From Ascidia mentula (lineage: Eukaryota > Chordata > Ascidiacea > Phlebobranchia > Ascidiidae), in assembly GCA_947561715.1 (NCBI GenBank), contig OX387199.1:13645001-13709000 (forward strand): a DNA stretch of 64,000 nucleotides, given 5' to 3'. This document shows positions 1 to 35,299 of this stretch, one piece after another (position 1 is the stretch's first letter; every line of letters starts with the position of its first letter). Position numbers and translations under genes: made by a program. The notes under the pieces were generated by a model, which searched no databases, had not been told where the DNA came from, and saw nothing but the letters and a program-made list of their open reading frames with translations.

Positions 1-3000
1 GCTTTTTTGCGCGCGGCTGTGGCGGTTTTATGCTTGTACAGTTTGTGGCCAATCAACGCGGCAAACAGGATGAAAAGAAGAGAACCAACAGAGACAGAAA
101 ACGGAACAATAAAAAACGTACATTCATTCCCATCTTTCAATCTGCACAAAAGTTTATGATTAGTGGAAGTTTGGATTTTTACAAACGAAATATGCCCTGC
201 AGAAAGTGACAAATAAATTTCCTTTTTGTTTGTTTACATTGCGATTATTTTCATTACCCGTCGCCGGTGAAAAGGAAACGACAAGTACAGTTGGCTCCGA
301 CATGTGGGGCTTTACGGTCCGTGCAGTAAGCACTTTCATCACATGGATTCCTTTCCATGCTACATGAATTTATGTCCGTGCAGCCAATGGGTATCTCGGT
401 ACCTATGTGTAAATGTTTGTTGTACAACATTTGATCTGATCATAACCGGATTATCTTTTTCTAATGCATTCAAACGCAGACTAAAAACAAGTCAATGACT
501 CTTGAATAAGAAACTGATAATGCCGTTGTTGCCGAACTCGATTTTACAATGATTTTATTGTAAAGAAACTAGTTGACATCAAACTAAAGTATTTTGTTTT
601 AAACTACTAAACTCGGCATTTTTTAATTTTGTTACATGATTCGTCACTATCGATGGACTTTGATCTGTAACGATTTATTAAGTTAATATTCTAGTTTTGT
701 TGTTATCTTACCCATGGTCTTGTTTGTGTTTATGCCGCTACCTTCATATCCACTTTGACACACGCAGCCCGTGTTAATCTCAGATGTTAATTTTTCGCAG
801 TTGGCATTTTTGCTGCAGTATTTAAATTGTGGTTCGCAGTGAACATCTGCATCAGAATAACGTGACTATGTAACTCCAGAATATAGTTTTTACGTTTCGC
901 ATGGTTTACCTGGTTTCCACTCGATAACCGTTACAATACATTCCCCTTCAGCGCATTGGTAATTGTTGTAAACCGCCCGAATGACTAATAAATATTTTTC
1001 TTCTCTTATTAGAATTCCAGACGTTGAAATATTGTGCTTGTATGCGACATGTTTTCCCAAGATGTATGGGTGACTTTTGTCAAACATGACGTCAAAAATA
1101 GGCTTAAAAACAAATATTTATTGACAAATTTGGAAAATTATACATTTACGTATGTCATAATTTGAGTATAGTGGTAAAGCAAATTAACATTTAATCAGCA
1201 GTTTAACAGATTAATAAAGTCGTAATTTTACATATGATCATTAAACTTACAATTTCACTAGTCAGATCGTCCGGTTCCTCGTATAGAGCATATGAAACTG
1301 CCTTTGATTTGGCCATCGAAGAAAATAGAGTTTCCACAACTATAAACTCGACAAGTCCATGCGTATGGATCGGGCTTATCCATGAAAGTTCAACCAGTGA
1401 AGTTCTTCCTTGCAGGTCGAACTCGGTGGTTTTCAATGTGACATTGTGCACGAGTCTGTCCGTGATACCCAAGTCTAATGGAGAATGCAACACGAAGTTT
1501 TTTAGTGTTTGCCTCGAATTTTACATATCAGCAGCAACTTTCCATGAATGTTTCTGAGATTTTTCCATATTTGCAGGTACATAAGCCATTAAAATATTAG
1601 TTGTGCCTATTTCTGAGAAGCGTGTTTAAGTTAATATTAATTTGCGTATAGGTTTTTTCTCAATTCGGTTTGGTTTCGCTAGAACTGCTGCAGAATATCA
1701 TGCAAAATCCTGCATTGAATGTTTCTCAACGAGTTGTGACCTATTGGAGATCGATAAGTGCAAAACGAAACTCCGATAAAGAAGTTTTGCTACATGTAAG
1801 TAAATTCGTCTTTTGAAATAAAAAACATTGATATTTTTTGGAAGTAAGCTTACAACGGCCCAACAACGTAAAATGACGCACCAGTGTGTCGCAACGCTCG
1901 ACTTGGGAACTTCAGTTATGACCTAGGTGGATAATAACCCTGTATGTAAGAGTATTGACATTTCCTATTAGTCATCTGAAAATAGGAAACAGTTGATTGT
2001 CGTAAAAGGGGTGACAATATATCAAGCCCTTGACAAGAAAAATGCATCAAGGATCCATCATCAAAATTTTCAAACGGGTCACCTTAAAAACGCCCTATCT
2101 CGTTTTTTTTCTGTGAAATTGTGTTGCAACCATTCAGCGTTGAATGCACACGAATTACCCCACAGTCAATATATTAAATATCAGGTTATGAAAAATACCT
2201 CACAAGCTTTTTACTTACTGAGGCATATTGTAGCGGCTTCAAAGTATGAGAGAAAGCTATCCATTAGCATACCAATGCAGTTGTATTGCGCCTTGATAAT
2301 TCTCGTTTGAGTGTTGCCAGTGCAGTTCCTAAACAATGTTTTTTTGCATTTATTCAACGACAACTAAGTGTGAAACTTACCTTCGGTATGTGGCAGTGAA
2401 AAACGTAAATTCCTGTCCAAACTGTACTTCAAACACAACGCGTTCCGTTGTCTGCAAATTAATACAACAATATGCATTATTGGCCGAGATTTTTTTCTTT
2501 GATAAGCAAGTTTTTTTACTATACCACATGAATTAAAGAGTAAACCACTAAATCACGTGCTCCAACCAACCAATACGCTTGACATATAACCACTACTGTG
2601 ATTCACTTGCGCATCATTGGACATTTCACTCAACAAAAAAAAGGAATGTTTTTGTGATCTTGCTTACAACTTACAGCTTTTATTGCAGTAAAACCTTGTT
2701 CATTGTGAAAGTGACACAAATTCCCATATATTGCATCATCGCAATTAATCAATGAAACATCAGGGTCTGTCACAGTTTCGTTTTTTCTGAGAAATAATAA
2801 GTTTAAAAAGAAGAATTTTTTTTTATTTTGTAAAATTCTAAGCAACAGCAATATTTAAATTTCGTTGATCGTATGACGACAAAGTGAACAAATACACATA
2901 CCTGTGAGAATATGTTTTGTTGTTACGTCCTTGAAGTTTAATCAAAAACCAATCAGGCTTTTCTGAATGAAGAAAGCAAACAGTCAGTATTTTTCTTGCG

Positions 3001-3391
3001 CATATTATGTCGAAAAAGGTTGTGAATTATATTTACCAACATTTATATGGCTCAAAAAAACATGTAAAAGCAATTGTACGGACTTGGTTCCATTTTCATT
3101 GGTTTGAAACTCCACTGTATGTTGGGTCGAAATCTTGATTTTATCGTTGTATTCTATGACAAAATAGGGTACCGATGGTAGCTTCTATAATATTGCTGAG
3201 AGTAGCTTCTTTAAAGAAAACGATTTAAATACATTCATTTATTCTTTTGGATACACAAAAATAGTATCTTTGATTTGATCCCCAGCTTAAAAGGTCATTG
3301 TATAGATGCAATAAAACCAACCTTTGCATGCTGTTCCTTTCGTCGATCCATACAAACAAGTAATTATCACTAATCTAAGCAAACAACTCAT
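1..3391 (-). pseudogene. RTK-A, ectodomain half of a receptor tyrosine kinase, kinase half outside window
   Basis: This is the leftmost copy of the receptor kinase family, cut by the window start inside the transmembrane exon (KTATAARKK basic segment after the membrane). Recognisable exons, 5' to 3', are: a signal-peptide exon from 3391 (MSCLLRLVIITCLYG), ectodomain exons near 3180-3030, 2955-2895, 2790-2680, 2470-2380 and 2330-2220, the FN3-like pair (about 1477-1250 and 1105-910), two EGF-like exons (about 850-715 and 400-265) and the start of the membrane exon. Exon order and splice phases match RTK-E. The anomaly is an in-frame TAA at 3287-3289 in exon 1, where RTK-E has TTA (Leu). The same TAA is in copies B and C. 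The other exons I read are open. It is either an early pseudogene or a gene with a different first exon. The kinase cannot be judged. Confidence 0.7.
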
Positions 3392-5727: not shown

Positions 5728-7560
5728 TTTACCTTATGTTCGGTGACGTTAGGTTAAAGCTGAGAATATTGAAGTAGCGTCACAAAATGCTCGCCTATAC
5801 AATTTTAGGCATAAGTTTAAGCACAAACACGAAATTACTCTGGCTGCACATTCGTGAGCTTTCGTGGCCCATTAGCCGTCAGGAGCCCATTCAGGTTTAA
5901 CACCACCTCGCAGATTCTATTTAGTTGCGGTATTTTTACAGTTGTAAACTTACGGACTTTAACTGCAAGAAATACTGGTTACAAAGTTTGAGATCAATGA
6001 ATGATCTATTGTATTCAAGGCGGAAGTTGCCTAAGTTGTACGCAGTGATATTCTTTTAAGTAGCTTAATTACCACGTGTTTTCACTCAGAACCCACAAAA
6101 CAATCATTGATTCTTGCTCAAGAGCGCTTCAAACTGTACAGCACAATAAACGATCTTTATCGTCTAATTCGAAAATACAGCAGTAGATAAGAGTTCGTAA
6201 TTGGAATGTCCATACAAGAATAAACCTGAAATCATTTATTACAAGATTTCTGTCAACTATGTCAAACCACAGTCAAGTGTGCATAAGAGCTGCTCTATCG
6301 TGTATCACAACATTCCAGTCAACTGCGCGAAACCGCAATCAGGCTCACACAAGCGCCAGACATGACGGATTAATCCAGTAAAACACACGTGACTGCAACC
6401 GATGAAATATTTGCCCGTTCTTAGTGCTGAGTTCAAGTAAGTAATTAATTCCGCTCAGAAGCCTTTTTTTTTTTTTGTGTAGCACAAAAGAACTTTTTCG
6501 AAGAACCGCTACTTGTCCTTTCTTCAAAATATGTGTCATGCTTGATACCCAATACGTGCTTACATTTGATCATCATTGTTTGACCTGTAATTTCGTGTTA
6601 TATACAACTAGATGAGGTAGCCTACAATACACTTTTGCTGAACGGAGGTTTCCACTGTTTGAACCCTCTTTCCACACAGGCACTACTAGATTTCTACAAC
6701 TCTTTGCGCCAGTAAAGCGATAGTGCACAATTAGGAACATAACAGACTGGTTTTTCTGAATCTCCAATACAAACAAAATAGCCAACGCAATAGTCGAGAA
6801 TTTCACAAACGAACCCTTCAATCGTTTTGAGTGCAATACGAGCAGAATCCAACAGTTAATTTAAGTAAAACAAGCTCCTCTGCAAAAGAAAAAGTCTTTT
6901 AAGTGACGGAAAAAAAGTTTTTAGCAAGCAATTGACATTGGCCTAATTGGTATTTAACTTTGGTAAAAACCTTTGTGGCACTTTGCTAACAATCGGTTAT
7001 AGGGTTGTTAACAATCGGTTCGCGTAGATCGTTAAAATCCAAGAGTAACTGCTTGAATCCTACCACTGGGTGAAGGTATGGTTTAGCGCTGAATCGCAGA
7101 AAGAACTCAGCAGCAAAGAATATTTCCGTTTTTCAAAAGCACAAATTTTCTATCATCTGTTGTAATTATCAGATGCGAATTGTTTTTGCACATTGCTTAC
7201 ATCCAGTTTCCATGTCTATGTTTTACAAATCGTAGATAGATATTTTCCCGGCAAGTGTTTATAAGAAGGGCTAAAAATGACGCATATGGCCACAGTAGTA
7301 GAAGTTTTGTATCATGTAGTTAGATGATATAAATACCTATTGCACCTTTGTAACAATTAGGTTAAAGCAAACGTTGATTTTCCAAAGTTTCATTTCACCA
7401 AATTTTAACTTTTTCTATCATAGCACAACAAAATAGACTTTCTTCTCCATTCACGAACTTGATATATTTCCCTTTGCTACAGTTGCACCCACTCAATGCA
7501 CAAAGTTGATTTATTTGATGTGTATTCTATATATTAGGCACAGGATTTTTCGGCACTGAT
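5728..7560. other. Spacer upstream of GST-A; diverged copy of the 35.3-36.4 kb promoter region
   Basis: No coding region was recognised. The stretch 5730-6840 aligns by eye with 35300-36400, the region upstream of the intact GST (shared blocks such as TTCGGTGACGTTAGGTTAAA and ACTAGATGAGGTAGCC). The duplication unit therefore included the GST 5' flank. From about 6990 to 7560 it aligns with the spacers near 15.2-15.85 kb, but without the hAT-like insertion found there. This gives the empty insertion site at about 7020-7033. Confidence 0.6.
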
Positions 7561-7631
7561 CTAGTCTCTATTAAATTGACATAATTATGCAGTATCGATT
7601 CTTTGTTTCGAAATAATTCTTGTTCCAATTC

Positions 7632-10600
7632 TTAGACAATTTCCGAGAAGGTGGGTCTCGAACATCGCTTAAAACTCCAACACTTCATCATCAGAGAATA
7701 CCTAAACAAAAATCACGTAAATTGTTTTGTTCTTTTATTGCATTTTTTAACCCAAATATTTGTCTGTTGCAATTTTCAATGGAAAAAGGGTTTTTGTGTT
7801 TTTAAGTTTGTGGTGTTTCTCAAATGTTGTGTTGACAATAAGAAACTTCTATGAAAAACCCCAAAGATCTCGTTTGGTATGAGGTGATGGCTGTAGTAGA
7901 GGTCTACTAAGAACGTACATGAGGCAACTGCAAGTTGGTGGCTGTGACATTCGATGATCAGCTTCAAGATGTTCAAGAAGTACGTCGAAGTCGAGGTCGG
8001 GATAAGGCGGACATCCAAACGTTACAATCTCATACATTAGGTTTCCATACGACCAGCTGAACAGGAAAAACGGTTGTAATGTTGAAGTCGCAAGGGATAT
8101 GAAAAAATAAGGGCAAATACAGCAATTGTTTTCACAAAAAAAATGACAGTAATGAAATGTCAACGAAACAAATTAGCTTTTGCTTATGTAGCTGGAGGCT
8201 GGAAAATATGTAATTCTTATGTCTTGCAACTTCAACACAATCAAAACTGTAATATTACTTCACTGGATGACAACCATTTATTATCTGTCGAAAACTTACA
8301 CGTCACTTTTAGTTGATATGGAAACTTTTCCGCCCATTAAACGTTCCGGACTCGCCCATCTAAACGGAATACACTTCTCCGTCTGCGATCGAATAACGCC
8401 ATATCTAAAAAAATGTTCCCTTATTGTAGCTGCACAAACAAAGTGTTGGTATTTTCTCCACATGGTTATTAACATGGACTTGATTATGGTCACTTAACTT
8501 ATACGGTGGTGAGGTTTTAACACTGTTACATATCCCTAAAATATTGTTCCGAAGAAACTTTCGCAACTTCAACTCCAAAACTTAAATATTTGGCACTGCA
8601 CTTTCCATGTAATTGGGAAGTGTTTGAAACTTGTAATGTTAGAAAGCATCCAAATTGTAACAAAGTTGAAGTGACCGTGGCACCTTTTTTAGACAAGTAA
8701 TAATTCTTCGTACATTTAAAATGCGTCTCAAAATACAAAATGACCATTTTCCAATGGTGCTGTTTACAACGGCTTGGTTCCCACAGAACCGAACGACGTT
8801 TACCAAATAATTTACCTTTGTGGCACAAATATTCTTTACAAACCTGTAAACATCATTTGCGAGGCCGAAGTCGGATATTTTGCAAACTTGATGATCTCCA
8901 ACCAGTATATTGCGAGCTGCAACATCTCCGTGAATTATCTTTATTTTGGAAAGATACCTGAGACCCTTTGCAACATCGAGCGACATTTTGTAGAAAACCT
9001 CGTACTTGAAATTGTCAGGAAACAAATCGTAGTCCTGAACAAACAGAATGGATTAACAAACACAAATTTCGTGATAAGGAATTTTATTAACAAAAATAAA
9101 TTTTCTGTCCCAGTCATAACAGCAGGCCACACAAAATCATTTTTTTTGAGTAATGGGACGCTTAAATGATAAATACTTCCGAACTACCAAAAACATATTG
9201 TGCGCGCGGTAAAATGTTTAACGCTAGATCGGTTGTTCTCAAACTGAGGTTAAGGGGCACGCAAATAGTCACGTCTGTAAGTAGGAGAGATTTGGTACAA
9301 TGTGCAAGATATGTGTTGCCTGGTTTGGACAAAAATATCAAAGTGACCACTCAAGAATTAAAATAATAAAAAAAAATTCCGCAACAAGTTATATGTTATA
9401 TGCAAGTTATATGCAACACATAATTATTTACCTGCACACGCTCTGAAAGATAGGTCAACAAATCACCGTGCTTTAGATATTCCGTGATCAGCATCAGAGG
9501 TCTTGTGGTTGTGCAGCACCCAATAACCTTCACTATATTATCGTGGTGTCCTACGTTGATCATAAACGAAATCTCAGAAAGAAATGCACGACGTCCTTCA
9601 GCGTTTCGAAACATTTCTGTGTTTTTTTTAAGAACTCTTTTAATGCATTTGGCTAGAAAGGGCTAGAAATTTATAACATAACTTTTTATCACGGTTATGT
9701 ATTTGTAAAAATGCATTTCCTACTGATTTGCCAATGGCCTATTTTTATCCGCTCCCTATATATATAACGTCTCGCTTTCCATGTGACTACAAAAGTTAAT
9801 TTAAGTATAACTAAACACAAATATATTTTATTCATGCACTTCGTACCATTCAACATTTTCACAGCAACTTTTGTCTCGGTATTTTCTGACATGTATCCTT
9901 CGTACACAGTTCCATGGTTCCCATGTCCAAGTTGTCTAACAAGAGAAATTGTTCCCTTGGCAATTTCCCAACGATCGCCGAAAGTAGGAATACAGTGATC
10001 CTGTAAGGTTTGTTTCAACTTAAGTACTACAGAACTACAAAGTAAAGATTTGTAGGTATGTAATATTTGTTCTACGATAATTTGTAAAAGTTCCAATAAA
10101 CAGTCATACACGACCCCAAAAGGGTTTTCCAAAATTTTGTTCAATGTCATGAAACCTTATTGTTTGGTGCCTGGGTTGTTGTCGAGCGAAGTGCTTTTTT
10201 GCGCGCGGCTGTGGCGGTTTTATGCTTGTACAATTTGTGGCCAATCAACGCGGCAAACAGGATAAACGCAAAAGAACCAACAGAGACAGAAAACGGAACA
10301 ATAAAAAACGTACATTCATTCCCATCTTTCAATCTGCACAAAAGTTTCTGATTAGTGGAAGTTTGGATTAACTTTTACAATTAAATATGCCCTGTAGAAA
10401 GTGACATAATAAATTTCCTTTTTGTTTGTTTATATTGCTATTATTTTCATTACCCGTCGCCGGTGAAGAGGAAACGACAGGTACAGTTGGCTCCGACATG
10501 TGGAGCTTTACGATCCGTGCAGTAAGCACTTTCATCACATGGATTCCTTTCCATGCTACATGAATTTATGTCCGTGCAGCCAATGGGTATCTCGGTACCT

Positions 10601-13600
10601 ATGTGTAAATGTTTTGTTGTTGAACATTTAACCTGATCATAACCGGATTGTCTTTTTCTAATGCATTGAAACGCAGACGAAAAACAAGTCAATGACACTT
10701 GAATACGAAACTGATAATGCCGTTGTTGCCGAACTCGATTTTACAATGATTTCATTGTAAAGAAACTAGTTGACATCAAACTAAAACATTTTGTTTTAAA
10801 CTACTAAACTCGGCATATTTTAAAGTTGTTATATGATTCGTCACTGTCGATGGACTTTGATCTGTAACGATTTATTGAGTTAATATTCTAGTTTTGTTGT
10901 TATCTTACCCTTGGTCTTGTTTGTGTTTATGCCGCTGCCTTCATATCCACTTTGACACACGCAGCCGGTGCTGATCTGAGATGTTAATTTTTCGCAGTTG
11001 GCATTTTTGCTGCAGTATTTAAATTGTGGTTCGCAGTGAACATCTGCATCAGAATAACGTGACTATGTAATTCCAGAATACAGTTTTTACGTTTCGCATG
11101 GTTTACCTGGTTTCCACTCGATAACCGTTGCAATACATTCCCCTTCAGCGCATTGGTAATTGTTGTAAACCGCCCGAATGACTAATAAATATTTTTCTTC
11201 CCTTATTAGCATTCCAGACGTTGAAATATTGTGCTTGTATGCGACATGTTTTCCCAAGATGTATGGGTGACTTTTGTCAAACATGACTTGAAAAATAGGC
11301 TTTAAAACAAATGTTTATTGACAAATTTGGAAAATTATACATTTACGTATGTCATAATTTGAGTATAGTGGTAAATCAAACTAACTTTTAATCAGCAGTT
11401 TAACAGATTGATAAGGTCGTAAATCTACATATGATCACTAAACTTACAGTTTCATTTGTCGGATCTGCCGGTTCCCCGTATAGAGCATATGAAACTGCCT
11501 TTGATTTGGACAAAAAAGAATGTAGACTTTCCACAACTATGAACTTGACAAGCCCATGCGTATGGATCGGGCTTATCCATAAAAGTTCAACCAATGAAGT
11601 TCTTCTTTGCATGTCGATCTCTGTGGTTTTCAATGTGACATTGTGCACGAGTCTGTCCGTGATACCCAAGTCTATAATGGAGAATGAAACACGATGTTTT
11701 TTGGTGTTTGTCACGAATGTTGCATATCAGCAGCAACTTTTCAAGAATGTTTCTGAGATTTATTCATACTTGCAGATACAAAAGCCAAAAAATATTAGTT
11801 GTGCCTATTTCTGAGAAACGTGTTTAGGTTATTATTAATTTGTGTAACATGTTTTTTATCGATTTGATTTTGTTTCGATAGAACTCTTGCAGAAATATTA
11901 CGCAAAATTTTGGATTGAATGTTTTTGAACGAGTGGAGACCTAATGCAGATCAATGTGTATTTTGGACTCCGTAGTTTCCACTTCATGAACCGATAACGC
12001 ACTCACCCCCTTCGAATTGTTATGGACACGAATAAAAAATATGACAAATTTTGAAAGATAAATCTGCCAATACGTATAACGATAGGCGTTATACATTATG
12101 GTATGTGCAAAATGAAACTCCGATAAAGAAGTTTTCCTACATGTAAACGAATTCTTCGTTTAAAAAAATAAACATTTATATATTTTAGGAGTAAGCTTAC
12201 AACGGCCCAACAGCGTAAACATGACGCACCAATGAGTCGCGACGGCCCATTAGGGAAGTTTTGCTATGACCTATAGGTGGATAACATCCCTGTATGTAAG
12301 AGTATTGACATTCTCCATTAGTCTTCTAAAAATAGGAAACAGTCCAGTGTCGAAAAAGGAGTGACAATATATCAAGCCCTTAACAAGAAAAATGCATCAA
12401 GGATTCATTAGCAAAATTTTTGAACGTGTCACCTTATTAACGCCCTTTCTCGTTTTTTTTTCTGTGAAATTGTATTGTAACCATTCAGCGTTGAATGCAC
12501 ACGATTTACCCCACAGTCAATATATTAAATATCAGGTGATGAAAATTACCTCACAAGCAATTTACTTACTGAGGCATAATGTAGCTGCTTCAAAGTATGG
12601 GACGAAGCTATCCATTAGCATACCAATGCAGTTGTATTGCGCCTTGACAATTCTGGTTTGTGTGTTGCCAGTGCAGTTCCTAAACAATGTTTTTTTTGCA
12701 TTTATCAAACGACAACTAAGTGTGAAACTTACCTTCGGTACGTGGCAGTGAAAAAAGTTAATTCCTGTTCAAACTGTATTTCAAACACAACACGTTCCGT
12801 TGTCTGCAAATTAATACAACATTATGCATCATCGGGCGGGGTTACTATTTCTTTGGTTTTATTTTTCTGAATGATGAAAATGGTTGCCATACAAAATGGA
12901 CTTTAAGATTGCAGTTCAATATGTAAATAAGGTTTTTTATTTAAAAAAACGAGTTACTATTCCACGAACAAGCAATATGCTTAAAATGTAACCACTACTG
13001 AAAGTCACTTGCGCATCATGGAACATTCCACTCAACAATAAAGTAATGTTTTTGACTAATGGGGCCAGTCTACATCAGTAACAACCCTATTTAACTTTGA
13101 ACTTGTTTACAACTTACAGCTTGAATTGCAGTAAAACCTTGTTCAATGTAGAAGTGGCACAAATTCCCATTTAATGCATCATCGCAATTAATCAATGAAA
13201 CATCAGGGTCTGTCACAGTTTCGTTTTTTCTGAGAAATAATAAGTTTGAAAGGAAGAATTTTTTTTATTTTGGCAAATTCTAAGCGACAGCAATATTCAT
13301 ATTTCGTTGATCGCATGACGACAAAGTGAACAAATACACATACCTGTGAGAATATGTTTTGTTGTTACGTCCCTGAAGTTTAATCCAAAACCCATCAGGC
13401 TTTTCTGAATGAATAAAGCAAGCAGTCGGTCTTTACATTGCGTATACTACCTCGAAAGCGGTTGTGAATTATACTTACCAAAATCTAAGTGGCTCAAAAA
13501 AACATGTAAAAGCAATTGTACGGACTTGGTTCCATTTTCATTGGCGTGAAACTCCACTACATGTTCGGTCGAAATGTTGAGTTTATCGTTGTATTCTATG

Positions 13601-13833
13601 ACAAAATAGGGTACCGATGGTAGCTTCTATAATATTGCTGAGAGTAGCTTCTTTGAAGAAAACAATTTGAATACATTCATTTATTCTTTTGGATATACAA
13701 AAATAGTATCTTTGATTTGATACCCAGCTTAAAAGGTTATTGTATAGATGCAATAAAACCAACCTTTGCATGCTGTTCCTTTCGTCGATCCATACCAACA
13801 AATAATTATTGCTAATCTAAGAAAACAACTCAT
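7632..13833 (-). pseudogene. RTK-B, receptor tyrosine kinase copy with an exon-1 stop and a truncated C-terminus
   Basis: This is a full-length family member. Exon 1 begins at ATG 13833 with a hydrophobic leader (MSCFLRLAIIICWYG). The ectodomain exons run to about 11.1 kb, the EGF-like exons lie near 11.04-10.9 and 10.6-10.45 kb, and the membrane exon near 10.34-10.16 kb. Kinase exons start at 10000, 9616, 9034, 8404, 8056 and 7701. Kinase motifs are visible: GHGNHG loop, VAVK lysine, HGDVAARN catalytic loop, DFG, WASPE, and the RPTF block near the end. There are two defects. An in-frame TAA at 13729-13731 in exon 1 is shared with copies A and C. A private TAA at 7632-7634 turns a Gln codon of copies C-E into a stop and removes about 25 C-terminal residues, just after the kinase core. 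Otherwise the exons and splice sites I read look intact. Confidence 0.75.
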
Positions 13834-14146
13834 AATCTTGTTTTGTAATTTCCTCTTGTATAAATAACGTTGAACACAGACGAACACCTCGCTGCCTTTC
13901 GCGATCATCGCTTCAGTCAAACATCCCCAGGGCAAACTGGTCAGTGGCTTGATTACAGTCTTCCGACAGGATACAAAGCCACGAAAATGGGTGTCGCAAG
14001 ATTTTCTGTTATGCATAGGCATGATAGGGCAAGAAATCGGTTAACAAATCACAAAGGGAGAACACCAGCAAGCAATGACTGACTTGTTAATTAATAATAC
14101 AATGGTTATTTGCGCAAGCAAGTATTTTTTGATTGGCTTCTGCTTT

Positions 14147-14333
14147 TTATTCATATTGCTTAATATTTTCAAGGAAAACATCTTGTCCGGCTTTCATTCC
14201 ATCCTTATTGCATTCTTCGAAATACGGAAGTTTTTTCATTCGTACAATCCAATCGTTTAGTTTTGGAAATTTGGCCGCACCCATTGTAAGCACAGAAATC
14301 CATACATAAAACAGACGTTATTCCGAATAAATT
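14147..14333 (-). pseudogene. GST-B remnant: last exon only
   Basis: This is an orphan copy of the last GST exon (compare 33496-33680), still ending in the IKQYE-stop codons. The acceptor AG has been lost and an extra base shifts the frame within the exon. Exons 1-3 are absent; the homology to the GST locus stops within the former intron near 14.8 kb. The remnant sits just upstream of RTK-B, where a complete GST would be expected. Confidence 0.75.
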
Positions 14334-14984
14334 TGCAAGTTTTATAGCGGTATTGATTATCATATGTTTATTAAAACATTAGGTACATATAGTTTTTCAT
14401 AAAATTTTCGTTTATAGGTTGCATAGGCGCTTAGTTAAATGTTCGTAACTTCCTTTATTGTTGAAACCTCTTTGGAATCGAAAACTAATGATTCAGAATC
14501 CATGCACCCCCTTGGAACAAATCTTGCACTCCTACTGTTTGATATTTCGTGGCATACGCCATAGAGCGTCTGAAAATTAAGCTGGATCGGTTCGTTACGG
14601 CAAAACAATTCTAGCCGGTATGCCAATGGCTGCTGTGTCCCAAAAATTTATGAGAAACTTCAATGTAGTGAATTCATTTACATATTTTAAAAATATCACC
14701 TAGTATACGAAATAGAATTTTTTCCGTTTAAATTCAATCGATCAAACAAGAATTTTTTTTACTTTTAACGCTGATAACAAAAATCTTTTATATATCTTTG
14801 CAATTGCAAACTATAAAATCGACTTCTTTTTTAATTTGATATCAAAATTTGTGATTAGTAAATAAAAACTCGATCAAAAAACCAAAGGCCCCTGGCAGGC
14901 TGTCGATCGCACAACGTATCAATAATAATGTATTAAAATCCCAACACAGCGATCTTTAGACAGCTCAGATGGATTTATTTAGAG

Positions 14985-21900: not shown

Positions 21901-22098
21901 TGCTGAGAGTAGCTTCTTTGAAGAAAACAATTTGAATACATTCATTTATTCTTTTGGATACACAAAAATAGTATCTTTGATTTAATACCCAGCTTAAAAG
22001 GTTATTGTATAGATGCAATAAAACCAACCTTTGCATGCTGTTCCTTTCGTCGATCCATACCAACAAATAATTATTGCTAATCTAAGCAAACAACTCAT
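15901..22098 (-). pseudogene. RTK-C, receptor tyrosine kinase copy with an exon-1 stop
   Basis: This copy has the same 18-exon layout as RTK-E. The leader exon starts at ATG 22098 (MSCLLRLAIIICWYG), the FN3-like exons lie at about 19946-19725 and 19574-19380, the EGF-like exons near 19320-19180 and 18875-18730, and the membrane exon near 18612-18430. The kinase exons run from about 18355 down to the stop at 15901-15903. The catalytic motifs [21 protein letters not shown] and WASPE are all present. One private change places Val where the others have Asp in the GDRW segment before the kinase. Exon 1 carries the TAA shared with A and B (21994-21996) and a second stop just after it. From about 17.1 to 20.6 kb it is almost identical to RTK-E, which implies a recent copy or gene conversion. 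Confidence 0.75.
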
Positions 22099-22411
22099 AA
22101 TCTTGTTTTGTAATTTCCTCTTGTATAAATAACGCTGAACACAGACGAACACCTCGCTGCCTTTCGCGATCATCGCTTCAGTCAAACATCCCCAGGGCAA
22201 ACTGGTCAGTGGCTTGATTACAGTCTTCCGACAGGATACAAAGCCACGAAAATGGGTGTCGCAAGATTTTCTGTTATGCATAGGCATGATAGGGCAAGAA
22301 ATCGGTTAACAAACCACAAAGGGAGAACACCAGCAAGCAATGACTGACTTGTTAATTAATAATACAATGGTTATTTGCGCAAGCAAGTATTTTTTGATTG
22401 GCTTCTGCTTT

Positions 22412-22598
22412 TTATTCATATTGCTTAATATTTTCAAGGAAAACATCTTGTCCGGCTTTCATTCCATCCTTATTGCATTCTTCGAAATACGGAAGTTTTT
22501 TCATTCGTACAATCCAATCGTGTAGTTTTGGAAATTTGGCCGCACCCATTGTAAGCACAGAAATCCATACATAAAACAGACGTTATTCCGAATAAATT
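22412..22598 (-). pseudogene. GST-C remnant: last exon only
   Basis: This is the same orphan last-exon remnant as at 14147-14333, in the same position upstream of RTK-C, and nearly identical to it. The block 13.1-15.85 kb and the block 21.35-24.1 kb correspond at a constant offset of about 8,265 bases, so one was copied from the other after the GST had already been lost. Confidence 0.75.
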
Positions 22599-23249
22599 TG
22601 CAAGTTTTATAGCGGTATTGATTATCATATGTTTATTAAAACATTAGGTACATATAGTTTTTCATAAAATTTTCGTTTATAGGTTGCATAGGCGCTTAGT
22701 TAAATGTTCGTAACTTCCTTTATTGTTGAAACCTCTTTGGAATCGAAAACTAATGATTCAGAATCCATGCACCCCCTTGGAACAAATCTTGCACCCCTAC
22801 TGTTTGATATTTCGTGGCATACGCCATAGAGCGTCTGAAAATTAAGCTGGATCGGTTCGTTACGGCAAAACAATTCTAGCCGGTATGCCAATGGCTGCTG
22901 TGTCCCAAAAATTTATGAGAAACTTCAATGTAGTGAATTCATTTACATATTTTAAAAATATCACCTAGTATACGAAATAGAATTTTTTCCGTTTGAATTC
23001 AATCGGTCAAACAAGAATTTTTTTTACTTTTAACGCTGATAACAAAAATCTTTTATATATCTTTGCAATTGCAAACTATAAAATCGACTTCTTTTTTAAT
23101 TTGATATCAAAATTTGTGATTAGTAAATAAAAACTCGATCAAAAAACCAAAGGCCCCTGGCAGGCTGTCGATCGCACAACGTATCAATAATAATGTATTA
23201 AAATCCCAACACAGCGATCTTTAGACAGCTCAGATGGATTTATTTAGAG

Positions 23250-24165: not shown

Positions 24166-25769
24166 TCAAGTCTCTATTAAATTGACATAATTATGCAGTA
24201 TCGATTCTTTGTTTCGAAATAATTCTTGTTCCAATTCTTGGACAATCTCCGAGAAGGTGGGTCTTGAACATCGCTTCCAACTCCAACACTTCATCATCAG
24301 AGAATACCTAAACAAAAATCACGTAAAATTTTTGGTCCTTTACTGCATTTTTTAGCCAAAGATTTTTTTGTTGCAATTTACATGGAAAATGTGTTTTTGT
24401 GTTATTAAATTTGTGGTGTTCCGTAAATAATGTGTTGGCAATGAAAAATTTCCATGAAACACTTTAAAGATCTCAGTTGGTGTGAGGTGATGGCTGTAGT
24501 AGGCCAACTAAGAACGTACATGTGGCAGCTGCAAGTTGGTGGCTGTGACATTCGATGACCAGCTTCAAGATGTTCAAGAAGTACGTCGAAGTGGAGGTTT
24601 GGATAAGGTGGACATCCGAACGTTACAATCTCATACATTAGGTTGCCATACGACCAGCTAAACGGGGAAAAAACGGTTGTATTGTTGAAATCGCAAGAGA
24701 TTTGAAAAACTAAGAGCAAATACAGCAATTGTTTTCACAAAAAATGACAGTAAGGGAATGTCAACGAAACATAGACATGATTTTGTAGTTGGAGGCTGGA
24801 AAATATGTAAATATGTAATATGTAATTTTATTGATAATGGTTGTAGAAACAATCGAAACGTTTACATAAAGTTTTCCAGCACTGTATTGGCTATTCTGTT
24901 CATATTAAAGATTTACAAAACCGTTAGTTATGTTCCTATGTAATTCTTGTGTCTTACAATTTCAACACAGTCCTAACTGTATTATTACTATACTGGACAA
25001 CAACCATTTATTATAAAACTTACACGTCACTTTTAGTTGTTATGGAAACTTTTCCGCCCATTAAACGTTCCGGACTCGCCCATCTAAACGGAATACACTT
25101 CTCCGTCTGCGATCGAATAACGCCATATCTAAAAAAATGTTCCCTTATTGTAGCTGCACAAACAAAGATGATAGTGTTGGTATTTCTTCCACATGGTTAT
25201 TAACATGGACTTGATTATGGTCACTCAACTTATATGGTGGTGAGGTTTTAACACTGTTCCATATCCCTAAAGAACGTAATATTGTTCCGAAGAACCTTTC
25301 GAAACTTCAACTCCAAAACTTAAATATCTGGTGCTGCACTTTCCATGTAATTGGGAAGTGTTAAAAACTTGTAATGTCAGAAAGCATCCAAATTGTATCA
25401 AAGTTGAAGTGACTGTGGCACATTTTTTACACAAGTAACAATTCTACGTACATTTAAAATGCGTCTCAAATACAAATAACCATTTTCCAATGGTGCCGTT
25501 TAAAACGGCTTGGTTCCCACTGAACTGAACGACGTTTCTCAAATAATTTACCTCTGTGGCACAAATATATTAACAAACCTGTAAACATCGTTTGCGAGAC
25601 CGAAGTCGGATATTTTGCAAACTTGATGATCTCCAACCAGTATATTGCGAGCTGCAACATCTCCGTGAATTATCTTTATTTTGGAAAGATACCTGAGACC
25701 CTTTGCAACATCGAGCAACATTTTGTAGAAAACCTCGTACTTGAAATTGTCAGGAAACAAATCGTAGTC
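24166..25769 (-). pseudogene. RTK-D, 3' fragment with only the last four kinase exons
   Basis: This fragment carries the [11 protein letters not shown] exon (starting at 25769), the activation-loop and WASPE exon, the subdomain IX-X exon and the final exon with its stop at 24166-24168. It has no leader, ectodomain, membrane segment or ATP-binding exons, because the tandem duplication copied only this part. It lies directly downstream of RTK-E, so it could at most be reached by transcript read-through. All four exons are open and match RTK-E. Confidence 0.85.
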
Positions 25770-26429: not shown

Positions 26430-29400
26430 TCAAGTCTCTATTAAATTGACATAATTATGCAGTATCGATTCTTTGTTTCGAAATAATTCTTGTTCCAATT
26501 CTTGGACAATCTCCGAGAAGGTGGGTCTTGAACATCGCTTCCAACTCCAACACTTCATCATCAGAGAATACCTAAACAAAAATCACGTAAAATTTTTGGT
26601 CCTTTACTGCATTTTTTAGCCAAAGATTTTTTTGTTGCAATTTACATGGAAAATGTGTTTTTGTGTTATTAAATTTGTGGTGTTCCGTAAATAATGTGTT
26701 GGCAATGAAAAATTTCCATGAAACACTTTAAAGATCTCAGTTGGTGTGAGGTGATGGCTGTAGTAGGCCAACTAAGAACGTACATGTGGCAGCTGCAAGT
26801 TGGTGGCTGTGACATTCGATGACCAGCTTCAAGATGTTCAAGAAGTACGTCGAAGTGGAGGTTTGGATAAGGTGGACATCCGAACGTTACAATCTCATAC
26901 ATTAGGTTGCCATACGACCAGCTAAACGGGGAAAAAACGGTTGTATTGTTGAAATCGCAAGAGATTTGAAAAACTAAGAGCAAATACAGCAATTGTTTTC
27001 ACAAAAAATGACAGTAAGGGAATGTCAACGAAACATAGACATGATTTTGTAGTTGGAGGCTGGAAAATATGTAAATATGTAATATGTAATTTTATTGATA
27101 ATGGTTGTAGAAACAATCGAAACGTTTACATAAAGTTTTCCAGCACTGTATTGGCTATTCTGTTCATATTAAAGATTTACAAAACCGTTAGTTATGTTCC
27201 TATGTAATTCTTGTGTCTTACAATTTCAACACAGTCCTAACTGTATTATTACTATACTGGACAACAACCATTTATTATAAAACTTACACGTCACTTTTAG
27301 TTGTTATGGAAACTTTTCCGCCCATTAAACGTTCCGGACTCGCCCATCTAAACGGAATACACTTCTCCGTCTGCGATCGAATAACGCCATATCTAAAAAA
27401 ATGTTCCCTTATTGTAGCTGCACAAACAAAGATGATAGTGTTGGTATTTCTTCCACATGGTTATTAACATGGACTTGATTATGGTCACTCAACTTATATG
27501 GTGGTGAGGTTTTAACACTGTTCCATATCCCTAAAGAACGTAATATTGTTCCGAAGAACCTTTCGAAACTTCAACTCCAAAACTTAAATATCTGGTGCTG
27601 CACTTTCCATGTAATTGGGAAGTGTTAAAAACTTGTAATGTCAGAAAGCATCCAAATTGTATCAAAGTTGAAGTGACTGTGGCACATTTTTTACACAAGT
27701 AACAATTCTACGTACATTTAAAATGCGTCTCAAATACAAATAACCATTTTCCAATGGTGCCGTTTAAAACGGCTTGGTTCCCACTGAACTGAACGACGTT
27801 TCTCAAATAATTTACCTCTGTGGCACAAATATATTAACAAACCTGTAAACATCGTTTGCGAGACCGAAGTCGGATATTTTGCAAACTTGATGATCTCCAA
27901 CCAGTATATTGCGAGCTGCAACATCTCCGTGAATTATCTTTATTTTGGAAAGATACCTGAGACCCTTTGCAACATCGAGCAACATTTTGTAGAAAACCTC
28001 GTACTTGAAATTGTCAGGAAACAAATCGTAGTCCTGAACAAACAGAATGGATTAACAAACGCAAATTTCGTATTAAGGAATTTTATTAACAAAAATAAAT
28101 TTTCTGTCCCAGTCAAAACAGCAGGCCACACACAATCACTTTTTTGCCTAATAGGACGCTTCAATGATAAATACTTCTGAACTACCAAAAACATATTGTG
28201 CGCGCGGTAAAATTTTAAACCGCTGGTGGTTCTCAAACTGGGTTTCAGGGGGTAAGCACGCAAATTGTCACGTCTGTAACTAGGAGAAATTTGGTACAAT
28301 GTGCAAGATATGTGTTGCCTGGTTTGGATAAAATATCAAAGTGACTATTCAAGAATTCTCAAAAACTCAAAAAAATATTTTCGCAATAGGAAGGTCTTAT
28401 TATATACGCAAAAGAGCCAAGAAGGTTTTGTTCATTACATGTTTTATATGCAACTCATAATTATTTACCTGCACACACTCTGAAAGATAGGTCAACAAAT
28501 CACCGTGCTTTAAATATTCCGTGATCAACATCAAAGGTCTTGTGGTTGTGCAGCACCCAATAACCTTCACTATATTATCGTGGTGTCCTACGTTGATCAT
28601 AAACGAAATCTCAGAAAGAAATGCACGACGTCCTTCATCGTTTCGAAACATTTCTGTTTTTTAAAAGAACTCTTTTAATGTAATTTTAAAAAGTGCAATA
28701 TATATATACAATTAAACTTTGTTATCATGGTTACGTATTTGTAAAAAAGGCATTTCCTACTGATTTGCAATTGGCTTAATTTTATCCGCTTCATGCCCTA
28801 TATATATAACGTCTCTCTTTCCATGTGACTACAAAAGTTAGTTTAAGTACAACTAAACACAATAATATGTCGTTCATGCACTTCGTACCGTTCAACATTT
28901 TCACAGCAACTTTCGTCTCGGTATTTTCTGACATGTATCCTTCGTACACAGTTCCATGGTTCCCATGTCCAAGTTGTCTAACAAGAGAAATTGTTCCCTT
29001 GGCAATTTCCCAACGATCGCCGAAAGTAGGAATACAGTGATCCTGTAAGGTTTGTTTCAACTAAATTACTACAGAACTACAAAGTAAAGATTTGCAAGAC
29101 ACGAAAAATAAAATACTTTTGTATGTAATTTGCTTAACGTTGTTGTTAAGCGAAGTGCTTTTTTGCGCGCGGCTGTGGCGGTTTTATGCTTGTACAGTTT
29201 GTGGCCAATCAACGCGGCAAACAGGATAAACGCAAAAGAACCAACAGAAACAGAAAACGGACCAATAAAAAACGTACATCCATTCCCATCTTTCAATCTG
29301 CACAAAAGTTTCTGATTAGTGGAAGTTTGGATTAATTTTTACAAAAAAATATGGCCTGCAGAAAATGACATATTAAATTTCCTTTTTAATTGTATTGAGA

Positions 29401-32400
29401 TTATTTTTATTACCCTTCACCGGTGAAGAGGAAACGACAGGTACAGTTGGCTCCGACATGTGGGGCTTTACGATCCGTGCAGTAAGCACTTTCATCACAT
29501 GGATTCCTTTCCATGCTACATGAATTTATGTCCATGCAGCCAATGGGTATCTCGGTACCTATGTATAAATGTTTTGTTGTACAACATTTGACCTGATTAT
29601 AACCGGATTGTCTTTTTCTAATGCATTTTAACGCAGACTAAAAAAATGTCAATGACTCTTGAATAAGAAACTGATATTGCCGATGCTGCCGAACTTGATT
29701 TTACACTGATTTCATTGTAAAGAAACTAGTTGACATCAATCTAAAGCATTTTGTTTTAAACTACTAAACTTGGCATTTCGTAATTTTGTCATATGATTCA
29801 TCACTATCGATGGACTTTGATCTGTAACGATTTATCGAGTTCATATTCTAGTTTTGTTGTTATCTTACCCATGGTCTTGTTTGTGTTTATGCCGCTGCCT
29901 TCATATCCACTTTGACACACGCAGCCAGTGCTGATCTCAGATGTAAATTTTTCGCAGTTGGCATTTTTGCTGCAGTATTTAAATTGTGGTTCGCAGTGAA
30001 CATCTGCATCAGAATAACGTGACTATGTAACTCCAGAATAAAATTTTTACGTTTCGCATGGTTTACCTGGTTTCCAAACGACAACCGTTACAATACATTC
30101 CCCTTCAGCGCATTGGTAATTGTTGTAAACCGCCCGAATGACTAATAAGTATTGTTCTTCCCTCATTAGCATTCCAGACGTTGAAATAGTTTGCTTGTAT
30201 GCGACATGTTTTCCCAAGATGTATGGGTGATTTTTGTCAAACATGACGTCAAAAATAGGCTTAAAAACAAATATTTATTGACAAATTTGGAAAATTATAC
30301 ATTTACGTATGTCATAATTTGAGTATAGTGGTAAAGTAAATTAACATTTAATCAGCAGTTTAACAGATTAATAAGGTCGTAAATCTACATATGATCACTA
30401 AACTTACAGTTTCATTTGTCGGATCTGCCGGTTCCCCGTATAGAGCATATGAAACTGCCTTTGATTTGGACAAAAAAGAAAGTAGACTTTCCACAACTAT
30501 GAACTTGACAAGCCCATGCGTATGGATCGGGCTTATCCATGAAAGTTCAACCAATGAAGTTCTTCTTTGCATGTCGATCTCTGTGGTTTTCAATGTGACA
30601 TTGTGCACGAGTCTGTCCGTGATACCCAAGTCTATAATGGAGAATGAAACACGATGTTTTTAGTGTTTGTCACGAATGTTGCATATCAGCAGCAACTTTT
30701 CATGAATGTTTCTGAGATTTATTCATACTTGCAGATACAAAAGCCAAAAAAACATTAGTTGTGCCTATTTCTGAGAAACGTGTTTAGGTTATTATTAATT
30801 TGTGTAACTTGTTTTTTATCGATTTGATTTGGTTTCGATAGAACTCTTGCAGAAATATTACGCAAAATCTTGGATTGAATGTTTTTGAACGAGTGGAGAC
30901 CTAATGCAGATTAATGTGTATTTTGGACTCCGTAGTTTTACTTCATGAACCGATAACGCACTCACCCCCTTCGAATTGTTATGAAGACGAATAAAAAATA
31001 TGACAAATTTTGAAAGATAAATCTGCCAATACGTATAACGATAGGCGTTATACATTATGGTATGTGCAAAATGAAACTCCGATAAAGAAGTTTTGCTATA
31101 TGTAAACGAATTCGTCTTTTAAAAAATAAACATTTATATATTTTAGGAGTAAGCTTACAACGGCCCAACAGCGTAGACATGACGCACCAATGAGTCGCGA
31201 CGCTTCATTAGGGAAGTTTTGTTATGACCTATAGGTGGATAACATCCCTGTATGTAAGAGTATTGACATTCTCCATTAGTCTTCTAAAAATAGGAAACAG
31301 TCCAGTGTCGAAAAAGGAGTGACAATATATCAAGCCCTTAACAAGAAAAATGCATCAAGGATTCATCAGCAAAATTTTTAAACGTGTCACCTTATAAACG
31401 CCCTATCTCGTTTTTTTCTGTGAAATTGCGCTGTAACCAACTAGCGTCGAACACACGCAAATTACCCCACAGTAAATGTACGAAATATAAAGTTATGAAA
31501 ACTACCTCACAAGCTATTTACTTACTGAGGCATAATGTAGCTGCTTCAAAGTATGGGAGGAAGCTATCCATTAACATACCAATGCAGTTGTATTGCGCCC
31601 TGACAATTCTGGTTTGTGTGTTGCCAGTGCAGTTCCTAAACAATGTTTTTGCATTTATCAAACGACAACTAAGTGTGAAACTTACCTTCGGTATGTGGCA
31701 GTGAAAAAAGTAAATTCCTGTTCAAACTGTATTTCAAACACAACGCTTTCCATTGTCTGAAAATTAATACAACAATATGCATCATCGGGCGGGGTTACTA
31801 TTTCTTTGGTTTTATTTTTCTGAATGATGAAAATGGTTGCCATACAAAATGGACTTTAAAGTTGCAGTTTAATATATAAATAATTTTTTTATTTGAAAAA
31901 GCGAGTTACTATTCCACAACCAACCAATACGCTTGACATATAACCACTACTGTGAGTCACTTGCGCATCATTGAACATTCCACTCAACATAAAGTAATGT
32001 TTTTGACCATTGGTGCCAGTCTACATCAGTAACTACCCTACCTAACTTTGAACTTGTTTACAACTTACAGCTTGAATTGCAGTAAAACCTTGTTCAATGT
32101 AGAAGTGGCACAAATTCCCATTTAATGCATCATCGCAATTATTCAATGAAACATCAGGGTCTGTCACAGTTTCGTTTTTTCTGAGAAATAATAAGGAAGA
32201 ATTTTTTTTTATTTTGGCAAACTCTAAGCAGCAAATATTCAACAGCAATATTCTTATTTCGTTGATCGTATGACGACAAAGTGAACAAATACACATACCT
32301 GTGAGAATACGTTTTGTTGTTACGTCCCTGAAGTTTAATCCAAAACCCATCAGGCTTTTCTGAATGAATAAAGCAAGCAGTCGGTCTTTACATTGCGTAT

Positions 32401-32794
32401 ACTACCTCGAAAGCGGTTGTGAATTATACTTACCAAAATCTAAGTGGCTCAAAAAAACATGTAAAAGCAATTCTACGGACTTGGTTCCATTTTCATTGGC
32501 TTGAAACTCCACTAAATGTTCGGTCGAAATGTTGAGTTTATCGTTGTATTCTATGACAAAATAGGGTACCGATGGTAGCTTCTATAATATTGCTGATAGT
32601 AGCTACTTTTAAAAAAAAGATTTGAATACATTCATTTACTCTTTTGGATACACAAAAATAGTATCTTTGTTTTTGTCCCCAGTTAAAAAGGTCATTGTAT
32701 AGATGCAATAAAACCAACCTTTGCATGCTGTTCCTTCCGCTAATTCATACAAACAAGTAATTATCGTTAATGCAAGGAAACAATTCATAATCAT
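26430..32794 (-). CDS. RTK-E, receptor tyrosine kinase (FN3-like + 2 EGF + TM + kinase), complete model, 811 aa
   Basis: This is a predicted single-pass receptor tyrosine kinase of the plasma membrane. The exons by splice reading are 32794-32654, 32581-32434, 32359-32299, 32180-32069, 31756-31686, 31635-31526, 30631-30408, 30259-30067, 30003-29869, 29558-29414, 29297-29117, 29042-28889, 28653-28469, 28033-27843, 27392-27288, 26921-26784 and 26571-26430. All phases join and the sum is 812 codons. Residues 1-20 are a hydrophobic leader ([17 protein letters not shown]). Residues 21-214 match no family I know. Residues 215-353 look like a fibronectin III fold. EGF-like repeats follow at 354-398 and 399-446, a membrane segment at about 456-478 and a kinase at about 520-790. 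Kinase residues: GHGNHG loop at 532-537, Lys555, His655-Gly656-Asp657 (Gly where HRD kinases have Arg), Asp675-Phe-Gly, activation-loop Tyr683 and Tyr685, and SPE at 702-704. Alternative start: Met3. The weakest point is the exon-1 donor (GTGTAT). Ligand and subfamily are not recognised. Confidence 0.82.
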
Positions 32795-32962: not shown

Positions 32963-33495
32963 GCTTACAGTAGTATTTTTTACGAAGTATCTAGGGATAT
33001 TCATTTTAGGTCGAAACAGTGGCCATCTATATGTTCAGCTTACACAATTGATATTTATTTTGTTTAGAAAATGCACAAAATTATTGGCCATACATAGTAC
33101 GCAGACATAACATCTTTTTTAAAATAGGGTTGTTGATTTTTTCTTCGGTAACATTTACTTCAGAAATGAGACGGAAACACCTGAACGGAAATAAAAATTT
33201 TAAAATCAAAGTTTGACGAGACGCTTTCTAGTACAACTTGTTAAAAAAACATTATGTACCTTTCATGTTTCCGTTTTTGGTCGCTGTTCTCGTAGGTTGA
33301 ATGGATTTTTCAAACTTATTTATGTTTTTTATGCATATTGTATTATTGTTTTGGCAGAAGCGATAATGCATGATAGGGCATGAAATCGGTTAACAAATCA
33401 CAAAGGGAGAACACAAGCAAGCGATGACCAACATGTTAATTAATAATACAATGTCTATTTGCGCCAGCAAGTATTTTTCAATTGGCTTTTGCTTT

Positions 33496-35299
33496 TTATT
33501 CATATTGCTTTATATTTTTAAGGAAAACATCTTGTCCGGCTTTCATTCCATCCTTATTGCATTCTTCGAAGTACGGAAGTTTTTTCATTCGTACAATCCA
33601 ATCGTGTAGTTTTGGAAATTGGTCGTACCCAGTGTAAGCACAGAAATCCATACATAAAACAGTTGTTATTCCGAAGAAATCTGTTTCATAGCGGTATTGA
33701 TTACACTATATTTGTTTAAACATTAGGTACGTGTAAATTTCTTCATTATGTATGTTGTCGTCGAGTTATGTCAGAAAAAAACTAAGTGATTTGTCGTGAT
33801 GATATCGTGTTTTTGTCATATGTATATGTGTAAATATATATAATTCGCCGTAAAAACGTTAAAAATACAAGCAACTCTGGCAAAACCATTTTCGTTGTGC
33901 ATAAAAGAGAGTTGGTTTTATACAAAAGCTATATGATAGCAAAACAACCATAAAAAGAAAACATCGAGCTGTAAGTTCTCATGAGTGCAGCTAGTGACTG
34001 TGCGCTATGTGCTACATTTTACTCAACGTCGAACAATTAGGGCATACAGTGGCCGAACAAAATTGTTTGAAATCTGTTAACTATACTTCAAGAAAGGCTT
34101 AAAGTTTTTCACAAAAATATAAAAAATAACTTCCTTCATAGCTGAAACCCCTTTGGTGACGAAAACTAATGATTTACAATCCAAACACCCCCTTGGAACA
34201 AAAGTTGCACCCATGCTGGTTGATATTACGTGGCTTACGCCTTAGGGCGTGTCTGACACGTGCTTTCGAGTTACCAATGCCAAAAGTACGCTGGATGGGT
34301 TCGTTACGGCAAAACAATTCTAGCCGGTACGTTGATCCGGTAGGAATTCAATGGCTGCTGTGTCCCAAAAAATCATGGGAAACTTCAATGTAGTAAATTC
34401 ATTCGTATATTTTAGTAATATCACCTAGTATACGAAATAGAATTTTTTCCCGTATAAATTCAATCGGTCAAACAAGATTTTTTTTTTACTTTTAACCTTG
34501 ATCAACAAAAATGTATTTCGGCATAACTCACCGGCGATTGTGAGGTGATTTCCTGCCAAATAATCCCCCTTTTCTAGAAAACTATTCATAATTTGAAGTG
34601 CTTCCTCGACTTTCGGGAGTTTCTCCTTACGCATGTTGTGTGCGTAGAAAAAAGTGTCATGCAAGTTCTGCAAAAGATTATCTTTAACCATAACGTACTC
34701 TTTAAAATATCTCTGCAATTGCAAACTGTCTTTTTTAGTTTAATATCAAAATTTGTTTATCAATGCAATTGCAAATGTCACAAGAATTTGTTTATTTTTT
34801 ACCATAAATACTTGTACATCTCCTTCCTTATTATTTTTACCAAGTAGTTGTAGATTATATTGTAAACCCAGTCAACTCTGGACAGCATCATGTCTACGAC
34901 CGCCCTTTCATGTACTTCTGATGGATACAACCTTTTTTTGTCGTCTGTTGCGTATTTGTTGCAAAGGTATGCAGAAATTGCACGACTGAAAGTTCAAGCA
35001 AGTAAAAATATTTTTTCTTTTGCAACAATGTCAATCAAACAATAAAAAAAATTAACAACATAATCATCGACAGTTCAAGTATCACTTTTACACAATTACC
35101 TTTCAGCAAGATTAAAATCTCCATCAAGAATAACCGGAACCAAACCGAATGGATTCATCTTCATAAAGTCAGGTTTCTTTTGATCCAGAGCAAGCAAGTT
35201 TATTTCTTCAACGTCATGTCCAAGGTCAAGTGCTTTAAAGGTCATGTAAACAGCGCGGGAAGGTGGGCTGGCGCTACTGTGATAAAACTTTATTGGCAT
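33496..35299 (-). CDS. GST-E, intact glutathione S-transferase, delta/theta-like, 236 aa
   Basis: This is a cytosolic enzyme that conjugates glutathione to electrophiles. There are four exons: 35299-35100, 34985-34841, 34712-34532 and 33680-33496. The phases agree and the total is 237 codons including TAA, close to the usual GST length of about 220. The N-terminal thioredoxin-like domain begins MPIKFYHSSASPPSRAVYM, with candidate catalytic Ser residues at 8, 9 and 11. The glutathione-site features are the Val54-Pro55 turn and the Glu66-Ser67 pair. The helical C-terminal domain includes a NHLTIADFFGITTVL stretch, the conserved N-capping and hydrophobic-staple region of GSTs. The last intron is the longest (about 850 bp). 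It lies upstream of RTK-E on the same strand, about 0.7 kb from its start, and is the only unbroken GST among four traces in the window. Delta versus theta class is a guess from the N-terminal serine type. Confidence 0.9.

What the first reader, a model, noticed from the sequence alone, without database searches (positions are those of the whole stretch)
1..35299. Tandem GST + receptor-kinase array with one surviving pair
Five RTK copies and four GST traces lie in one orientation. The order GST upstream, RTK downstream is repeated, so the pair was duplicated as a unit. Only RTK-E (811 aa) and GST-E (236 aa) give complete models. The others carry stops, frameshifts, exon loss or truncation. A receptor gene co-amplified with a detoxification enzyme, in a birth-and-death cluster beside p38, is unusual and may reflect selection for defence or allorecognition-like diversity. 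That function is inference.
Basis: partly seen in the sequence, partly recalled or inferred. Interest (0 to 1): 0.8.

Follow-up and report, generated by a model that had tools for sequence, protein, structure and literature searches.

The report
Tandem sea-squirt receptor kinases, hitchhiking GST
A stretch of a sea-squirt chromosome carries five head-to-tail copies of a cell-surface tyrosine-kinase receptor gene, three of them still readable from end to end, while the detoxification-enzyme gene that was copied along with them has decayed in every copy but one, so it looks like a growing receptor family with a passenger gene.

Summary
The window is chromosome 3 of the ascidian Ascidia mentula. 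The array is real: five RTK copies (A-E) and four GST traces in one orientation, starting 3.1 kb left of the window. "One surviving pair" is wrong for the receptor. Comparison of copies and chromosome-3 paralogues moves exon edges, and the supposed lesions fall in introns. RTK-A, C and E are open over 17 coding exons (769, 759, 759 aa), 16 of 16 introns GT-AG; B stops at codon 735; D is only the last four exons. A-E coding exons hold 0 indels in 2,099 bp, introns 93 in 3,280. Kinase dN/dS is 0.17-0.21 and ectodomain 0.50-0.90 in five pairs. The GST is intact only in E. No GST match lies at the 18 other copies found of this family, all on chromosome 3. Motifs read have HGD for HRD (15 of 23 copies). 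Best reading: unequal crossing-over of a lineage-specific RTK with a GST passenger. No transcripts were seen; C and E need a changed splice donor. Defence or allorecognition is untested.

The parts
33496..35299 (-). GST-E, open glutathione S-transferase gene, 236 aa; exons 35299-35100, 34985-34841, 34712-34532, 33680-33496
   Evidence: open frame; Pfam GST_N_3 1.5e-11 and GST_C 1.8e-9; best solved relative 3e-32
26430..32788 (-). RTK-E, 17 coding exons, 759 aa: signal peptide, ectodomain with EGF modules, one TM helix, tyrosine kinase
   Evidence: exons and translation, splice sites and hydropathy; kinase 2.5e-79 and EGF_3 3.4e-8 on an earlier 824-aa draft
24166..25769 (-). RTK-D, only the last four exons; lies in a 2,265-bp tandem duplication (23663-25927 repeated at 25927-28191, one mismatch)
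15901..22098 (-). RTK-C, 17 coding exons, 759 aa, open; B-like 5' part and E-like 3' part
22403..22615 (-). GST-C relic: last exon only, acceptor lost and frame shifted; exons 1-2 and most of 3 missing
   Evidence: place; alignment
7560..13833 (-). RTK-B, 17 coding exons with one in-frame stop at codon 735 of 759 aligned
14138..14350 (-). GST-B relic: last exon only, same loss as GST-C
   Evidence: place; alignment
1..3391 (-). RTK-A, exons 1-10 and part of 11 inside the window; the gene goes on to window position -2353; 769 aa, open
   Evidence: flank L022
4083..5739 (-). GST-A, all four exons traceable, frame broken (10 nt missing in exon 1, small indels in exons 3 and 4)
15398..15408 (.). 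AGGGGCGCCCC at a unit edge; also at 23663 and 25927, inside a dispersed repeat
   Evidence: 3 matches in the window, mean 0.00 in shuffles; edges; repeat on many contigs
37826..38923 (+). single-exon p38 MAP kinase beside the array

Best explanation
A young tandem array of a lineage-specific ascidian receptor tyrosine kinase. Unequal crossing-over, with edges in a dispersed repeat, copied an 8-10 kb segment that happened to include a neighbouring GST gene. Later exchange made RTK-C a B/E mosaic, and a last event copied E's 3' end (D). Shown here: structure, open frames, coding constraint, mosaicism and GST decay. Inferred: each open RTK copy makes a membrane receptor whose kinase does a conserved job while the ectodomain is loosely constrained or tuned to ligands; the GST is a passenger whose extra copies were dispensable, leaving one ordinary enzyme gene.
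For: Kilobases of co-linear identity including intergenic DNA. Open frames in A, C and E, all splice sites GT-AG. No indel in 2,099 coding bp in any of 6 pairs, against 81-93 intron indels in the three A pairs, 54 and 52 in B-C and B-E, and 10 in C-E. Kinase dN/dS 0.17-0.21 in 5 of 6 pairs. GST broken in A, B and C. Of 35 GST exon matches in the genome 13 lie in this array and 22 on other contigs, none at the other 18 family copies. Mosaic identity profile of C.
Against: No transcript was seen: every exon is inferred. In C and E a 29-nt gap removes the splice donor that A and B keep after the TM exon, so C and E need another GT (GTATTT); if it is not used they are broken and A is the best copy. 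Exon edges were set partly by agreement between copies, which favours equal exon lengths. C-E dN/dS is 1.17 overall (6.5 synonymous, 28.5 nonsynonymous differences), and the ectodomain of B-C, B-E and C-E cannot be told from neutral (Fisher p 0.82, 0.85, 0.63). B's stop falls about four residues before the end of the kinase profile match.
Confidence: 0.8

Rival explanations
1. One reading: a co-amplified receptor-detoxification pair in decay, with one functional pair left (E).
For: E is the only unit in which both genes are open.
Against: RTK-A and RTK-C are open and constrained; the other family copies have no GST match; the GST decayed where the receptor stayed open.
Confidence: 0.08
2. Part of the array, chiefly the 2,265-bp D/E duplication, is an assembly artefact from joining two haplotypes.
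For: One mismatch in 2,265 bp, as alleles or a false duplication would show.
Against: The assembly rests on 74-fold HiFi reads from DNA sheared to 12-20 kb, longer than the repeat, with purge_dups (passages). The other copies lie in series and differ by 2-11% in introns.
Confidence: 0.1
3. A recognition (immune or allorecognition-like) receptor family in which copy number and ectodomain variety are themselves selected. Not exclusive of the best explanation.
For: Nonsynonymous change is denser in ectodomain than kinase in 4 of the 5 pairs tested (A-E p=4.6e-9; not B-C, p=0.5; C-E not tested), synonymous density differs in 1 of 5 (B-C); 23 copies found on one chromosome; protein tyrosine kinase activity is an enriched term among dispensable genes of two lancelets (PMC12373286, section 9 read).
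Against: Ectodomain dN/dS is 0.50-0.90 in the five diverged pairs and 1.24, not significant, in C-E: relaxed constraint explains it as well. No polymorphism, expression or ligand data.
Confidence: 0.2

Closest known systems
Metazoan receptor tyrosine kinases
   Same: Signal peptide, ectodomain, one TM helix, kinase with GxGxxG, VAVK, AARN, DFG and SPE. Single-domain PDB matches run VEGFR2 192.9 bits, a Src-Abl ancestor 189.5, RET 185.6, ABL1 184.9 (best 60 of 741 shown), so no one family stands out
   Different: HGDVAARN instead of HRDLAARN; apart from EGF modules the ectodomain matches no Pfam family up to E=5
Lineage-specific RTK expansions in other animals such as sponges and amphioxus (recalled, not from a call)
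   Same: Many tandem and dispersed copies with a conserved kinase
   Different: Here the close copies found are all on one ascidian chromosome, with a GST passenger at one locus
Cytosolic GSTs of the delta/epsilon/theta kind
   Same: N- and C-terminal GST domains; solved relatives are named epsilon and delta GSTs; insect origin of these is recalled
   Different: Ascidian; class not settled, no tree was built and solved structures are a biased sample

Membership tests
Receptor tyrosine kinase | Tyrosine-kinase domain with catalytic lysine, aspartate, AARN and DFG | tested here: met
   Pfam PF07714 2.5e-79; motifs in the translation
Receptor tyrosine kinase | Signal peptide, ectodomain, one TM helix | tested here: met
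   Hydrophobic N-terminus and a 19-residue window of 1.94-2.34 starting at residue 404-408 in A, B, C and E; EGF_3. Hydropathy only, no dedicated predictor
Receptor tyrosine kinase | HRD arginine (usual, not strictly required) | tested here: not met
   HGD in the 15 of 23 family copies whose motif was read; HRD in the 5 of 8 other kinase loci (L001-L008) where the motif pattern matched
Receptor tyrosine kinase | Kinase activity, ligand, expression | not testable with these tools
   No transcript or protein data on hand
VEGFR/PDGFR, Tie or other named vertebrate RTK families | Family-specific ectodomain such as Ig or FN3 arrays (recalled) | tested here: not met
   Pfam finds only EGF in the ectodomain; an FN3-like look of exons 7-8 is by eye and unconfirmed
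Cytosolic GST | GST_N and GST_C domains in one open frame | tested here: met
Cytosolic GST, delta/epsilon/theta class | Class by phylogeny | tested here: inconclusive
   Only a ranking of solved structures
Allorecognition or immune receptor locus | High polymorphism between individuals | not testable with these tools
   One haplotype held; the alternate assembly GCA_947561685.1 is only named in PMC11109543
Birth-and-death gene cluster | Tandem copies of different age, some inactivated | tested here: met
   Difference 0.04% D-E, and in introns 2% C-E, 7% B-E, 10% A-E; GST relics and the D fragment

The most novel reading that the evidence does not exclude
Chromosome 3 of this ascidian hosts a private, growing family (23 copies found) of tyrosine-kinase receptors that lack the catalytic-loop arginine (HGD instead of HRD). 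They evolve by unequal exchange with a fixed kinase and a fast-changing ectodomain, and serve as individually variable recognition receptors that signal without the usual activation-loop control.
Probability: 0.1. Interest if true: 0.75.

Novelty: new member of a known kind. Interest (0 to 1): 0.4.

Why it matters
It turns a pseudogene call into a set of mostly open receptor genes, and shows how wrong exon edges can make a live tandem family look like ruins. It also marks a receptor family, found on one ascidian chromosome and sharing a departure from the HRD motif, that can be tested for variation between individuals with data already public.

Tried and rejected
First RTK-E draft: 824 aa, 18 exons. 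Old exon 5 is intron: it is partly deleted in A. Old exon 6 began 63 nt too early. The activation-loop exon was started 15 nt too early; paralogues read VYR followed by YG. An 'exon 8' at 31283-31229 broke the frame and was dropped. The lesions listed for RTK-A, B and C in old exons 5, 6 and 16 lie in those stretches and are withdrawn; B's stop in the last exon stays. The GST phases used wrong edges, so its GST stop counts are not used; GST lesions rest on the alignment. mis-set A's exon 16; its A values for whole gene and kinase are replaced.

Fibronectin III was suspected by eye in exons 7-8 and not found. One transcript for GST and RTK was considered because tunicates have operons (recalled); 707 bp separate GST-E and RTK-E; not tested. 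Literature: I saw only listings of searches (12 of 43 papers shown; 11 of 11; 3 of 3; none found for HGDLAARN; 10 of 45; 3 of 3); no listed title or abstract start concerns this family, which does not show that nothing is in print. The sigma-70 scan means nothing for an animal and was not used. Structure prediction was not run, because spliced proteins did not seem to fit its stated rule.

Full report
Where it is. The window is contig C52, positions 13,645,001-13,709,000, of a 195.8-Mb genome in 79 contigs. The mitochondrial contig is 19,461 bp and its cox1 has glycine at conserved sites when AGR is read as glycine, the ascidian code. A genome note on Ascidia mentula gives 197.0 Mb, 9 chromosomes and a 19.46-kb mitochondrion (abstract start in listing). 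Its Table 2 lists chromosomes 3, 1, 4, 7 and 9 at 23.17, 27.92, 22.72, 19.87 and 15.45 Mb (passages), which match C52, C1, C67, C71 and C73. So the window is chromosome 3 of A. mentula, assembly kaAscMent1.1 or a close version of it.

The array. Self-comparison shows head-to-tail copies from -3,093 to 36,400 in window coordinates, all on the minus strand. From 5' to 3': E (36,400-25,927), D (25,927-23,663), C, B, A. Copy A ends outside the window. Unit edges at 15,398, 23,663 and 25,927 share the string AGGGGCGCCCC (3 matches, mean 0.00 in shuffles). They lie in a repeat found on many contigs. Repeat-mediated unequal exchange is the natural mechanism (inference). RTK-C matches B at 0.987 and 1.000 in the windows at E coordinates 33,013 and 32,634. 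From 31,449 down it matches E at 0.98 or more in 12 of 14 windows (lowest 0.947), where B-C is 0.466-0.978 (the last window is partly unaligned flank for B). C is thus a mosaic. D repeats 2,265 bp of E's 3' end with one difference. A divergent relative, Z, lies at about -8,700 to -5,300.

The receptor copies are mostly open. Two comparisons overturned this. Paralogues elsewhere on chromosome 3 show where the activation-loop exon begins. Alignment of the four long copies shows that one supposed exon and the start of the next are intron, with conserved acceptors further in. With these edges A, B, C and E each have 17 coding exons, 16 of 16 GT donors and 16 of 16 AG acceptors. C and E are open for 759 codons, A for 769; B stops at codon 735. 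Two cautions. A, B and C lack E's first ATG and use the next one. C and E lack the TM-exon donor that A and B keep, so they need another GT.

Constraint. Leaving out the TM exon, which has two forms, coding exons hold 0 indels in 2,099 bp in all 6 pairs. Introns hold 93 in 3,280 (A-E), 93 in 3,268 (A-C), 81 in 3,383 (A-B), 54 in 3,828 (B-C), 52 in 3,848 (B-E) and 10 in 3,905 (C-E). Edges were partly chosen by agreement, which helps this contrast, but the re-set stretches are short. Kinase dN/dS is 0.17 (A-B), 0.20 (A-C), 0.17 (A-E), 0.21 (B-C), 0.18 (B-E) and 0.66 (C-E, 7 differences). Ectodomain dN/dS is 0.50, 0.50, 0.61, 0.90, 0.87 and 1.24 in the same order; the last three cannot be told from neutral. 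Nonsynonymous change is denser in the ectodomain than in the kinase in 4 of 5 pairs tested, not in B-C. This fits a conserved kinase under a loosely constrained or tuned ectodomain. Positive selection is not shown.

The GST. GST-E is open, 236 aa, with both GST domains. GST-A lacks 10 nt in exon 1 and has further small indels; B and C share a loss of exons 1-2 and most of 3, and their last exon has a lost acceptor and a shifted frame. Genome-wide, 35 exon-level matches were found, 13 in this array and 22 on C2, C67, C1 and C70. The receptor family has 23 copies by my count, from the 33 rows on C52 above the first row of another contig, out of 70 rows (counts are lower bounds, and the query was made from family members): 13 at 6.53-6.91 Mb, one each at 1.33, 1.42, 6.20 and 17.33 Mb, Z, and A-E. 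None of the 18 outside the array has a GST match near it, and in the nine relative regions read, holding 10 of the 18, no GST match is better than E=0.67. The GST is best read as a passenger.

What kind of receptor. Signal peptide, ectodomain with EGF_3 modules, one TM helix, kinase. The rest of the ectodomain matches no Pfam family up to E=5. The motif is HGD[VLI]AARN in the 15 of 23 copies where it was read (array A-E, Z and nine others). Of eight other kinase loci (L001-L008) five matched the motif pattern, all with HRD; L004, L007 and L008 gave no match. That HRD is conserved throughout protein kinases is stated in PMC8662651 (passages). Loss of this arginine usually loosens dependence on activation-loop phosphorylation (recalled); that it does so here is inference.

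Verdict. The DNA observation holds; the pseudogene reading of the receptors does not. An ordinary mechanism acts on a less ordinary receptor family. A role in defence or allorecognition remains a guess.

Noticed in passing
window 37826-38923 (+): p38 MAP kinase coded in one exon, the only full-length p38 match in the genome.
   Followed up: partly
G000:C52:6,534,891-6,906,224: A cluster of 13 relatives of this receptor at about 7-84 kb spacing, larger than the window's array; kinase exons of the five read are nearly identical.
   Followed up: partly
G000:C2 0.8-1.4 Mb, C69 19.3-19.6 Mb, C70 6.8-6.9 Mb, C72 12.6-13.1 Mb: Further clusters of tyrosine-kinase-like open frames of about 300 aa in one exon, many covering only profile positions from about 45 to 258.
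   Followed up: no
window 56531-60765 (-): Open frames that read as pieces of a LINE-type endonuclease and reverse transcriptase (recognised by eye).
   Followed up: no
window 34985-34841 and about 5450-5293: GST exon 2 is 99% identical between A and E although flanking introns differ clearly, which hints at conversion or late decay of GST-A.
   Followed up: no
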